Under the pieces are notes generated by a model that saw nothing but the letters and a program-made list of their open reading frames with translations, was not told the origin of the DNA and ran no database searches. From contig CADCVH010000063.1 in assembly GCA_902806085.1 (NCBI GenBank), positions 1 through 64,000 on the forward strand: a DNA stretch of 64,000 nt, written 5' to 3'. This stretch comes from an uncultured Rubrobacteraceae bacterium (GTDB lineage Bacteria; Actinomycetota; Rubrobacteria; Rubrobacterales; Rubrobacteraceae). Of the stretch, positions 2,563 to 5,711 are shown one piece after another (positions within the stretch are counted from its first letter, which is position 1; every line of letters starts with the position of its first letter). The position numbers were made by a program, and so were the translations under genes.

Positions 2563-2850
2563 TCAGCCCGGGCCGAGGGATCGCCTCAGCCGGGCCCACA
2601 GGCGACCGACCGGGCCGCGACCTTCTTCCCGCAGGGCCTCCAGCAGCGCCTCGAACTCCTCGCGGCAATCCCCGCACTTGCCGAGGTGATCTTCTACCAG
2701 CGGCATCGCCCTCGCCGCGTCGAGCCCAGAGAGATCCAGCTCGACGAAGCGCTCCAGCCGCTCGAAGCACTCGTCGCAGCCGATCTCCTCCTCGCGCGTG
2801 CGCGTAAGCGCCATCAGGACCATCCTGAGGTCCTTTTGGTTCTTATCCAA
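2563..2850 (-). CDS. Zinc-binding anti-sigma factor, soluble
   Basis: This 95-residue protein carries C25 and C28 and then the H55-x3-C59-x2-C62 signature of the zf-HC2 anti-sigma domain. It has no membrane helix, so it would act in the cytosol, and zinc or redox state could control it. It lies 55 bases downstream of a sigma factor gene on the same strand, the usual order for a sigma/anti-sigma pair, so it very likely holds that sigma factor inactive. The C-terminal part is rich in arginine and glutamate and may be the sigma-contacting helix. The signal sensed cannot be read from the sequence. Confidence 0.75.
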   Translation of the reverse strand: MDKNQKDLRMVLMALTRTREEEIGCDECFERLERFVELDLSGLDAARAMPLVEDHLGKCGDCREEFEALLEALREEGRGPVGRLWARLRRSLGPG

Positions 2851-2905
2851 CGGGGTGCGCTCCTTTTGTCTCCATGCTCCTCCGACCCCTCGGGCCGATC
2901 GATCC

Positions 2906-3535
2906 TTACCCCTGGGCGAGCTCCTCCAGCAAGTCTTTGGGGGAGAGTCCGTCCTCTTCCATGCGCCTCTTGAGCCGCTTTCGTGCGTCGTGCATCAGCT
3001 TGTAGAGGGCGCCCCTGGTGGTGCCCATGCGACGGGCCGCCTCCTCGAGCGGCATACCCTCGAACATTACCACCGTCATGGCCACCCGCTGTTTGTCTGT
3101 TAACTCCTGGTCCATAAATTTTCGTACCAAAGCGCCCGCATCCGCGCGCGTCGAAAGCTCCTCGGGGGTGGGCTCCTCGTCGGCGAACGCGTCCTTCCGG
3201 CTGCCGGTCTGCTCGTGCCGCTCCAGGGCCTCATCCAGCGACACGTCGCGCCATCTCAGGCGCCTCAGCTCCGTGAGGGCCACCCTGACGGAGATCTTCT
3301 GGGCCCAGGTTGTGAAGCGGCTCTCGCCACGGAAGGAGCCGAGGTTGCCGAGGACCTTCATGAGCGCCTCCTGGGCGAAGTCCTCGACCGCCTCCCGGGA
3401 GACGCCGCGCCGGGAGCCCAAGGCGGCCCCCAGCCCACGCACGAGGAGGACACGCAGGTCGGCGAGCGCCTCGTCGCGCGGCGGGGGTCGCAGCTGCGCC
3501 AACCACTGCTCGTTGGTGCGCTCCTTCTTCGGCAT
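2906..3535 (-). CDS. ECF-type sigma-70 family RNA polymerase sigma factor
   Basis: I start the gene at the ATG at 3535 (MPKKERTNEQW, 209 residues) because the longer frame upstream has no sigma-like sequence. Region 2 is recognisable in EDFAQEALMKVLGNLGSF and the ESRFTTWAQKI segment. Region 4 is a helix-turn-helix near residues 155–195 with EEAARRMGTTRGALYKLMH. Regions 1 and 3 are absent, as in ECF sigma factors. A TACAAT hexamer lies 8 bases before the start codon on the minus strand, so the transcript may have almost no leader. A soluble zinc anti-sigma gene follows. The regulon is unknown, but the divergently placed redoxin gene at 3727 is a plausible target. Confidence 0.85.
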   Translation of the reverse strand: MPKKERTNEQWLAQLRPPPRDEALADLRVLLVRGLGAALGSRRGVSREAVEDFAQEALMKVLGNLGSFRGESRFTTWAQKISVRVALTELRRLRWRDVSLDEALERHEQTGSRKDAFADEEPTPEELSTRADAGALVRKFMDQELTDKQRVAMTVVMFEGMPLEEAARRMGTTRGALYKLMHDARKRLKRRMEEDGLSPKDLLEELAQG

Positions 3536-3726
3536 CGAACGATCATTGTAGCGGCGAAGGACGATCTTCGCGCCGAGACCTTCACCGATCCTCGGTTGGA
3601 GCGAGTAGGCTCCGGGATATGAGGCTCGAACTCCGCGTCCAATAACCAATACCTCCGGGTCGCTGTGCGTGGCGAGGTTCAAAATGCTACTTTTGTAGAG
3701 AATGCACCAGACCGAAGAGGAGCGCC

Positions 3727-4419
3727 ATGCTCAAACCCAAAGATCTGGCCCCCGACTTCGCTTTGCCCGATCTGGACGGAAGTTCCCTGAGCCTCTCGGA
3801 CTTCCGCGGCCAGAGGGTGATCCTGTTTAACTTCTCGAGCTGGTGAACGTGCCGCGCCCAGCTGCCCGTGTGGCAGTCCTTTTTCGATGAGCGCCCCGAG
3901 CTAGACGCTCGGCTCATCGCCGTGGCGCTGGACGCCGTACCCGAGCGGGTACGGCGGCTCCCAGAAGCGCAGGGGGTGAGCTTCCCTATAGTGATCGACG
4001 AGCAGAATGCTCTGGGCGAGGCTTACCGGTTCAGTGCGGTCCCGAATGCGTTCCTGATCGACGAGGCCGGGGTGATCCGCTACGCTGGGTACGACGGGTT
4101 CTCTATAGAGCGCGATCCCGGGCGCGGCGAACTGCTAGCGGCGCTTGCCGGCGAAGAGGTGAACGCGGTCTCCTCGATGTCGCCGCCGGACCCGAAGGCC
4201 AACCGGCTCTTCGAGAAAGGTACGCAGGCCCTCGGGCGCGGCGAGCGCGACGTGGCGCTGGAACTGTGGCGCGAGGCGCGCGCTCTGGATCCCGACAACT
4301 GGATCATACGCAAGCAGATCTGGTCAGTGGAGCACCCGGAGCTCTTCTATCCGGAGATAGACAAGGATTGGCAGGCCGCACAACTGCAGCGGGAAGGCTA
4401 TGCTCGGCACCAAGACTAG
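3727..4419 (+). CDS. Candidate selenoprotein: thioredoxin-fold redoxin with in-frame TGA and TPR-like tail
   Basis: The ATG follows GAGGAG. The first 39 codons encode the start of a TlpA/peroxiredoxin-type domain (APDFALPDLDG, then RVILFNFSSW). Codon 40 (3844–3846) is TGA, and the frame continues without a break as TCRAQLPVWQ through the rest of the thioredoxin fold (SAVPNAFLIDEAGVIRY, with the cis-proline near residue 106) to a TAG at 4417–4419. The TGA occupies the position of the first redox cysteine after the conserved tryptophan, giving a U40-T-C42 motif. Residues 160–195 resemble one TPR unit. If TGA is read as selenocysteine the product has 230 residues. The alternative is a nonsense mutation, but no other frame damage is visible. 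No signal peptide is seen, so the protein is probably cytosolic. Confidence 0.66.
3862..3876 (+). promoter_or_regulatory. SECIS-like hairpin just after the in-frame TGA
   Basis: CTGCC (3862–3866) pairs perfectly with GGCAG (3872–3876) around the loop CGTGT. The loop begins 20 bases after the TGA at 3844–3846 and has a G in its second position. As I recall them, these features fit the bacterial SECIS consensus: a short stem, a small loop with an early G, and roughly 16–37 bases from the UGA. The stem is short and such hairpins occur by chance in GC-rich DNA, so this supports selenocysteine insertion without proving it. Confidence 0.5.
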
Positions 4420-4646
4420 TAACCGCTCGCAACGTGGGGTGGATGCTTCTCGGCCCACCCAAACAGCTTCGCGTACCCGGCCTCATTCGTAGGGACGTGC
4501 ATCTCTCCCAGCCGACGTCCGAGGTCGTCCACGGCGACGGCCACGTGCGAGTCGAGGTGGGTGTCCACCCCCACGGTGACGGGCTTCTTCTCTGCGGCGT
4601 TCTCGGTGACGGGCACGGTCGTTGTCACTCCTCTGCTCCGGGACAC
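4416..4646 (-). pseudogene. N-terminal remnant of an IS110-family transposase
   Basis: About 55 residues match the start of the DEDD-type transposase of IS110 elements: VTVGVDTHLDSHVAVAVDDL followed by GEMHVPTNEAGYAKLFGWA. The first catalytic aspartate (GVDTH) is present. Similarity stops after that, and the frame ends at 4416–4418, overlapping the stop codon of the redoxin gene. The DEDD remainder and the C-terminal serine domain are absent, so this cannot transpose. In IS110 elements the guide (bridge) RNA is encoded in the non-coding end next to the transposase start. Decayed traces could lie in 4647–4900, but I cannot recognise one. Confidence 0.72.
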
Positions 4647-5216: not shown

Positions 5217-5711
5217 CTAGTTGAAGAACCTCTCGCAGCCCACGAAGCGGTCGAGGTTCTGGTCGGGGCCCTTCTTGACCCTGTCGATTCCGGAGCCACA
5301 GTCCACCAAGTCCGCGCCGCCATCGCCCACAGAGAAGATCGTGTCGTTGCCGGGTCCGCCGTAGAGCGCGTCGTCCCCGGCCCCGCCCGAGAGGACGTCG
5401 TCGCCGGAGCCGCCGTGGACGGCCCGTTCCTCGGCCCGGTCGTCGCCGGGGCCGCCGTAGATGAGGTCCTCGCCGGGTCCGCCGTAGAGGCCGTCGTGGC
5501 CGGCGTCGCCGTAGAGCGTGTCGGCGCCGCCCAGGCCGTAGATGGCGTCGTTGCCGCCCAGGCCGTGGATCACGTTCGACTTCGCCGTGCCCTTGATGAC
5601 CTCCCCGGCCGCCGTGCCGTAGTCTATGGCCGTCGTGGTCGCAAAGGCCGCCCCGGCCGTGAGCGCCAGCATCAGCATCAACGTGGTGGTTATGGTCGCT
5701 ATCTTCCTCAT
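5217..5711 (-). CDS. Secreted RTX-type calcium-binding repeat protein
   Basis: This 164-residue protein starts with a signal peptide (MRKIATI, a hydrophobic core, then a GAAFA cleavage region near residue 24). The mature part is a run of nonapeptide-like RTX repeats such as GGNDAIYGLGGADTLYG and GGSGDDVLSGGAGDDALYGG, which in this family form calcium-loaded beta rolls. The end (VDCGSGIDRV, then GCERFFN) has two cysteines that could form a disulfide outside the cell. No enzymatic domain is visible, and the usual C-terminal type I secretion context is absent. A terminator follows at 5158–5185. The gene lies between two copies of a 30-base repeat, so it may have been inserted into the dprA region. 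Confidence 0.75.
   Translation of the reverse strand: MRKIATITTTLMLMLALTAGAAFATTTAIDYGTAAGEVIKGTAKSNVIHGLGGNDAIYGLGGADTLYGDAGHDGLYGGPGEDLIYGGPGDDRAEERAVHGGSGDDVLSGGAGDDALYGGPGNDTIFSVGDGGADLVDCGSGIDRVKKGPDQNLDRFVGCERFFN

What the first reader, a model, noticed from the sequence alone, without database searches (positions are those of the whole stretch)
3727..4419. Redoxin gene with an in-frame TGA that looks like selenocysteine in a UxC motif
Seen: codon 40 is TGA, flanked on both sides by uninterrupted thioredoxin-fold sequence in the same frame. It sits where the first redox cysteine should be after the conserved Trp, with a Cys two residues later (W-TGA-T-C-R). Known: Sec replaces catalytic Cys in thioredoxin-fold oxidoreductases. 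Inference: this is a selenoprotein of a UxC type fused to a TPR-like tail, a combination I do not recognise as described.
Basis: partly seen in the sequence, partly recalled or inferred. Interest (0 to 1): 0.78.

Follow-up and report, generated by a model that had tools for sequence, protein, structure and literature searches.

The report
Short selenocysteine redox protein gene
The bacterium very probably reads an apparent stop codon inside this redox-enzyme gene as the rare amino acid selenocysteine; the gene is a short, rare variant of a selenoprotein family already predicted in the literature.

Summary
The genome carries selA, selB and tRNA-Sec(UCA) in one cluster, and a selD with its own in-frame TGA. 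Of 20 sampled genomes with a family member of this motif type, 18 (own included) have TGA at the column and 2 have Cys. A hairpin fitting the published bacterial SECIS model follows the TGA; its five inner pairs are intact in 21 of 21 distinct TGA copies and 8 of 21 distinct Cys copies. The kind is not new: UGC-motif Prx/TlpA-like selenoproteins were tabulated in 2008 (PMC2398784), and NCBIfam has NF041054. The helical tail is common to that family. This gene differs: no N-terminal domain, U-T-C instead of U-G-C, and a score below the NF041054 cut-off. One short orthologue was found (L119, genome G249). Verdict: very probably a real selenoprotein gene, a short variant of a known kind; selenium incorporation and enzymatic role are inferred.

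The parts
3715..3722 (+). Shine-Dalgarno-like AAGAGGAG upstream of the start codon
   Evidence: read from the sequence
3727..4419 (+). selenoprotein gene: redoxin (ResA/TlpA-like) domain plus helical tail, 230 residues with TGA read as Sec
3844..3846 (+). in-frame TGA, proposed Sec40, first residue of the U-T-C motif
   Evidence: same column is TGA or Cys in relatives
3850..3852 (+). Cys42, proposed resolving cysteine of the motif
   Evidence: invariant in alignments A1 (10 rows) and A2 (22 rows)
3861..3877 (+). candidate SECIS hairpin GCUGCC-CGUGU-GGCAGU (6 bp, 5-nt loop with GU, 20 nt after UGA, -8.0 kcal/mol)
   Evidence: model criteria from PMC13188914 section 5
4192..4395 (+). C-terminal helical (TPR-like) tail, residues 156-223, containing the block IRxQIWxVEHPExFY shared with L119

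Best explanation
The gene encodes a selenoprotein. SelB and tRNA-Sec decode the UGA at codon 40, helped by a hairpin 20 nt downstream, giving a full 230-residue protein. The protein has a ResA/TlpA-like thioredoxin fold whose nucleophile, Sec40, sits just before the first active-site helix. Cys42, two residues on, would form a selenenylsulfide with it during turnover. The most likely activity is thiol-disulfide oxidoreduction on a cytosolic partner, held by the helical tail; a peroxidase role is the main alternative. Shown: reading frame, machinery genes, TGA/Cys exchange, hairpin conservation, fold match. Inferred: Sec insertion itself, the selenenylsulfide, the activity, the role of the tail, and cytosolic location (no N-terminal extension is seen; no signal-peptide program was run). 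The confidence given is for a decoded selenoprotein; for the oxidoreductase role alone I would say about 0.6.
For: selA, selB, tRNA-Sec (anticodon TCA) on one contig, and selD with its own in-frame TGA in an AGUGSK context. In one search, 20 of the 25 matched genomes have a family member with the UxC/CxC motif: 18 TGA (own included), 2 Cys; G249 makes 19 TGA genomes. 17 of these 19 have selA, against 131 of the 197 genomes; the Cys genomes G190 and G377 have none. Five inner hairpin pairs intact in 21 of 21 distinct TGA copies against 8 of 21 distinct Cys copies; L018 keeps them by paired changes (GGUCCC/GGGACC, with Val and Asp replacing Leu and Gln). Short orthologue L119: 40% identical over 218 aligned positions, TGA at the same place, own ATG 42 codons upstream. 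AlphaFold model pLDDT 82.8; nearest solved structures are ResA.
Against: The hairpin in this one gene is weak evidence alone: about 25% of synonymous recodings satisfy the model and 41% form the same 5-bp stem, and the 42-nt stretch has a competing fold at -11.9 kcal/mol. Two genomes with TGA copies, G038 (79% complete) and G072 (94% complete), show no selA. The eight same-genus genomes gave no match at the cut-offs used (weak or no matches). The gene and the Sec machinery lie on different contigs of an assembly with 4.55% estimated contamination, though the window contig also carries ribosomal protein S2. Window against L119, third codon positions are only slightly less alike than first and second after the TGA (0.52 against 0.60 and 0.55). 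No protein or selenium data; function is by analogy only.
Confidence: 0.88

Rival explanations
1. It is a selenoprotein, but works as a peroxidase: Sec40 attacks peroxide and Cys42 resolves the selenenic acid, with thioredoxin or another thiol as reductant. (A variant of the best explanation, not exclusive of it.)
For: Top Pfam match is AhpC-TSA; the 2008 survey files the UGC family as Prx-like; Foldseek also matches Bcp proteins at lower rank (3hjp, 3drn; that these are peroxiredoxins is recalled).
Against: NCBIfam and fold matches rank ResA/TlpA-type oxidoreductases first; the W before the Sec (Y in some copies) and the conserved V-P are of thioredoxin type (assignment recalled).
Confidence: 0.25
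2. The TGA is a nonsense mutation or sequencing error in an ordinary Cys gene, so the gene is broken or the sequence is wrong.
For: The gene is sporadic: no match in the eight same-genus genomes sampled at the cut-offs used, and an IS110 transposase remnant lies directly downstream.
Against: The same column is TGA in 18 other genomes, the genome has Sec machinery, and the protein past the TGA is conserved with a distant orthologue.
Confidence: 0.02
3. Translation ends at the TGA and a second protein is started at an internal codon (the GTG at 3868), so that the domain is split.
For: A 183-codon ORF from GTG 3868 is listed mechanically.
Against: It would lack the first strands and the active-site residues of the fold, and relatives with Cys at the column are open through it.
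Confidence: 0.03

Closest known systems
NCBIfam NF041054, WAxxUGC_long, 'ResA-like WAxxUGC motif-containing protein'
   Same: Best family match (E 1.2e-36); the same redoxin domain, Sec/Cys column and helical tail as relatives that match this model
   Different: 126.8 bits against a cut-off of 300; no N-terminal domain; motif F-S-S-W-U-T-C, not W-A-x-x-U-G-C
UGC-containing Prx-like / TlpA selenoprotein subfamily (PMC2398784, PMC9312934, PMC13188914)
   Same: pfam00578 domain, Sec two residues before a Cys
   Different: U-T-C instead of U-G-C; these papers were seen in passages and tables only, so lengths and architectures of their members were not compared
ResA, solved structures 4nmu, 1su9, 1st9
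   Same: Fold (best Foldseek E 9.9e-13, TM by target 0.82)
   Different: ResA has a CxxC motif and no helical tail (recalled); here one residue fewer between the two redox residues, with Sec first
L119 (genome G249) short orthologue
   Same: Similar length (233 residues), no N-terminal domain, W-U-T-C, same tail block
   Different: 40% identity only

Membership tests
Bacterial selenoprotein gene | Sec biosynthesis and insertion genes in the genome | tested here: met
   selA, selB, selD over cut-off; tRNA-Sec 64 bits with anticodon TCA
Bacterial selenoprotein gene | In-frame TGA aligned with Cys or TGA in homologues | tested here: met
Bacterial selenoprotein gene | bSECIS: loop 3-9 nt with early G, stem 4-16 bp, 16-37 nt after UGA, at most -7.5 kcal/mol | tested here: met
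   6 bp, loop CGUGU, 20 nt, -8.0 kcal/mol; criteria from PMC13188914 section 5. Weak in this gene alone
Bacterial selenoprotein gene | Selenium present in the full-length protein | not testable with these tools
   needs mass spectrometry
NF041054 (WAxxUGC_long) | Score over the curated cut-off of 300 bits | tested here: not met
   126.8 bits. Long relative L004 with U-G-C also fails it, at 200.7
NF041054 (WAxxUGC_long) | N-terminal part of the 354-position model, preceding the redoxin domain | tested here: not met
   39 residues precede the Sec and the match starts at model position 84; a C-x4-C element lies upstream in 49 of 54 copies by a simple pattern
NF041054 (WAxxUGC_long) | W-A-x-x-U-G-C motif (as in the model's name) | tested here: not met
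   F-S-S-W-U-T-C
UGC-containing Prx-like / TlpA selenoprotein subfamily | pfam00578 domain | tested here: met
   AhpC-TSA 73.2 bits, cut-off 26
UGC-containing Prx-like / TlpA selenoprotein subfamily | Sec motif UGC | tested here: not met
   UTC
ResA/TlpA-like thioredoxin fold | Fold | tested here: met
   predicted structure only

The most novel reading that the evidence does not exclude
A separate, undescribed branch of Sec redoxins: short, soluble, without the N-terminal domain, with U-T-C in place of U-G-C, in which the tail block IRxQIWxVEHPExFYPxxDxxWQ binds a dedicated partner distinct from that of the long family.
Probability: 0.35. Interest if true: 0.5.

Novelty: new variant of a known kind. 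Interest (0 to 1): 0.35.

Why it matters
Ordinary gene calling with table 11 ends this gene at the TGA (the mechanical list shows only a 183-codon piece after it), so such genes are easily mis-annotated. Natural TGA and Cys copies with one residue fewer between the redox pair would allow a test of what Sec buys in a UxC, as against a UxxC, active site. Long and short forms together would let the contribution of the N-terminal domain be tested.

Tried and rejected
Plasmid records: 18 had a match and none covered 80% of the query; the 10 rows shown were annotated as TlpA/redoxin/StoA proteins or had no annotation. A viral-contig scan confirmed no relative; one of its two patterns demanded Cys at the column. 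ORFs around six relatives were listed and I saw no shared neighbour by eye (filtered ORF lists, no family search). The sigma factor next to the window gene has 56-62% identical matches in five same-genus genomes; I listed ORFs of at least 120 codons around two of these (L113, L116) and saw no redoxin gene, which does not show an empty site. The 53-nt fold around the TGA is no better than shuffles (z 0.40). The tree joins the window gene with L005 (94/93), but both are long branches, which the program warns may join falsely; shared W-U-T-C and tail residues support the link; L119 was not in that tree. The genome-contig scan used a pattern with Cys at the column, so its 26 loci are Cys copies by construction and say nothing on the TGA:Cys ratio. 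In the hairpin count, Cys copies without the Pro of LPxW did not pass the script's filter and were left out (at least L058, L060, L064, L070, L093 and second Frankia copies, seen); identical 48-nt stretches were merged. Rows are related to each other, so the Fisher values printed overstate significance. Of the 21 TGA rows one is the window gene and one (L110) lies in a frame-broken copy. The codon usage of the synonymous test came from 11 stretches that I chose, not from the whole genome. Searches scored only the first 5 to 7 candidates of a genome, so copies may have been missed (G249 was missed and found). A profile search of solved-structure sequences also listed ResA and designed TPR proteins; the TPR rows had no single significant stretch and were not used.

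Full report
Observation. Window 3727-4419 (+) holds an ATG-initiated frame of 230 codons with one in-frame TGA (codon 40, 3844-3846) and a TAG stop. Read through, the protein has one continuous AhpC-TSA match (residues 5-119, E 2.2e-20), a Redoxin match, and a weak TPR_2 match below cut-off at 160-191. The best NCBIfam match is NF041054, 'ResA-like WAxxUGC motif-containing protein', E 1.2e-36, 126.8 bits against a cut-off of 300. G+C by codon position shows coding bias on both sides of the TGA.

Machinery. The window's own genome (G000, 4.41 Mb, 133 contigs, estimated contamination 4.55%) has selA (486 bits), selB (316 bits) and a tRNA-Sec with anticodon TCA within 4 kb of each other on contig C130. 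On contig C74 it has selD (354 bits) with its own in-frame TGA, read as ...SQKAGUGSKFAPG..., followed by a hairpin that fits the same model. The window is on a third contig, C63, which also carries ribosomal protein S2.

Relatives. A search with the window protein found TGA-bearing relatives among 197 genomes. A ten-row profile (A1) searched in 396 genomes of the phylum matched 25 genomes at E <= 1e-25. Five of these are set aside: G256, G289 and G295 are ordinary CxxC proteins, and the matches of G087 and G151 do not cover the motif. The other 20 have a family member with the UxC/CxC motif: TGA in 18 (own included) and a Cys codon in 2, G190 and G377. G249, found, makes 19 genomes with TGA. 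17 of these 19 have selA; G038 and G072 do not. Of the 197 genomes, 131 have selA, so the enrichment is modest. The two Cys genomes have none. A scan for Cys-type copies returned 26 loci, 25 of them titled as actinobacteria (Frankia and Acidimicrobiales among them) and one as a gammaproteobacterium. On a tree of 54 copies (22 Sec, 32 Cys) the label needs 6 changes, against about 17 for shuffled labels. The eight same-genus genomes gave no match at the cut-offs.

Hairpin. At 3861-3877 lies GCUGCC-CGUGU-GGCAGU, 20 nt after the UGA, -8.0 kcal/mol alone. It meets the four bSECIS criteria given in PMC13188914 section 5 (section read in full). The inner five pairs are intact in 21 of 21 distinct TGA copies and in 8 of 21 distinct Cys copies. 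L018 keeps the stem through paired changes that also change both amino acids. L119, read by eye, has GCUGCC-CGUGU-GGCAGC. Against: in this gene alone about 25% of synonymous recodings meet the model, and a competing fold exists.

The short form. By a simple pattern, 49 of 54 copies carry an upstream C-x4-C element. The five others are the window gene, L005 (which has a C-x5-C there), L013 (cut by a contig end), L110 (frame-broken) and L069 (88 open codons before the Cys; not resolved). The window gene has 39 residues before the Sec and only 27 further open codons upstream. It shares W-U-T-C and tail residues with L005, which is long. L119 in genome G249 is a short orthologue: ATG 42 codons before the TGA, W-U-T-C, 40% identity over 218 aligned positions. 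G249 has selA. A profile of the two matched 6 of 396 genomes at E <= 1e-22, of which only these two have the short form (with the other four seen). NF041054 is the best NCBIfam match of both, below its cut-off in both.

Structure. AlphaFold with 22 rows gave mean pLDDT 82.8, pTM 0.71; residue 40 directly precedes helix 41-54, and helices 156-170 and 174-187 form a TPR-like pair. Foldseek ranks ResA structures first (4nmu, E 9.9e-13). That a residue at the head of this helix is the nucleophile in thioredoxin folds is recalled.

Literature. 'Prx-like (UGC-containing)', pfam00578, motif UGC, is in a table of the GOS selenoproteome paper of 2008, which says it was more abundant in non-marine samples (PMC2398784, passages). 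It is listed again in reviews PMC9312934 (passages) and PMC13188914 (abstract, section 5, first of three parts of section 7, second of three parts of the reference list, passages). PMC5029168, which PMC13188914 cites for this family, does not hold the letters UGC in its main text, and PMC12013277 holds none of the six terms tried. A passage of PMC1794560 lists Rubrobacter xylanophilus in a selenoprotein table. PMC1088965 was seen in a listing only. Searches for UxC with selenoprotein and related words (3 papers), 'WAxxUGC' (none), 'UGC-containing TlpA' (1 paper) and selenoprotein with tetratricopeptide and TlpA (none) showed no mention of a short U-T-C form; the library holds open-licence papers only and supplements were not read.

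Conclusion. The gene is very probably a decoded selenoprotein gene and a short variant of a known, predicted family. I do not file it under NF041054 as modelled, because cut-off, N-terminal part and motif are not met; it is a relative that probably works the same way.

Noticed in passing
window 4416-4646 (-): N-terminal fragment of an IS110-type transposase (DEDD_Tnp_IS110, E 4.1e-6, 27.1 bits, just under the cut-off of 29) abutting the stop codon of the selenoprotein gene.
   Followed up: partly
window 2563-3535 (-): Divergently placed sigma-70-family factor (2906-3535) and a short ORF with CxxC pairs (2563-2850, zinc-finger anti-sigma-like by eye, no Pfam match).
   Followed up: partly
window 5217-5711 (-): RTX calcium-binding nonapeptide repeat protein (HemolysinCabind, E 2.7e-23).
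   Followed up: no
L007, around position 500 (+), genome G036: Permease-like frame with TGA in SMUTGCAAPLVV, upstream of a long family member; resembles an SO_0444-type metal efflux selenoprotein by eye only.
   Followed up: no
L110 (genome G030 C1:2561004-2562020, -) and L087 (G030 C1:422939-424030, +): Two copies in one genome: one is split between frames around its TGA motif, the other has an in-frame TAG besides the TGA.
   Followed up: no
L018/L089 (genome G072): TGA copy with a compensated hairpin in a 94%-complete assembly without a selA match; either selA is missing from the assembly or the copy is not decoded.
   Followed up: partly
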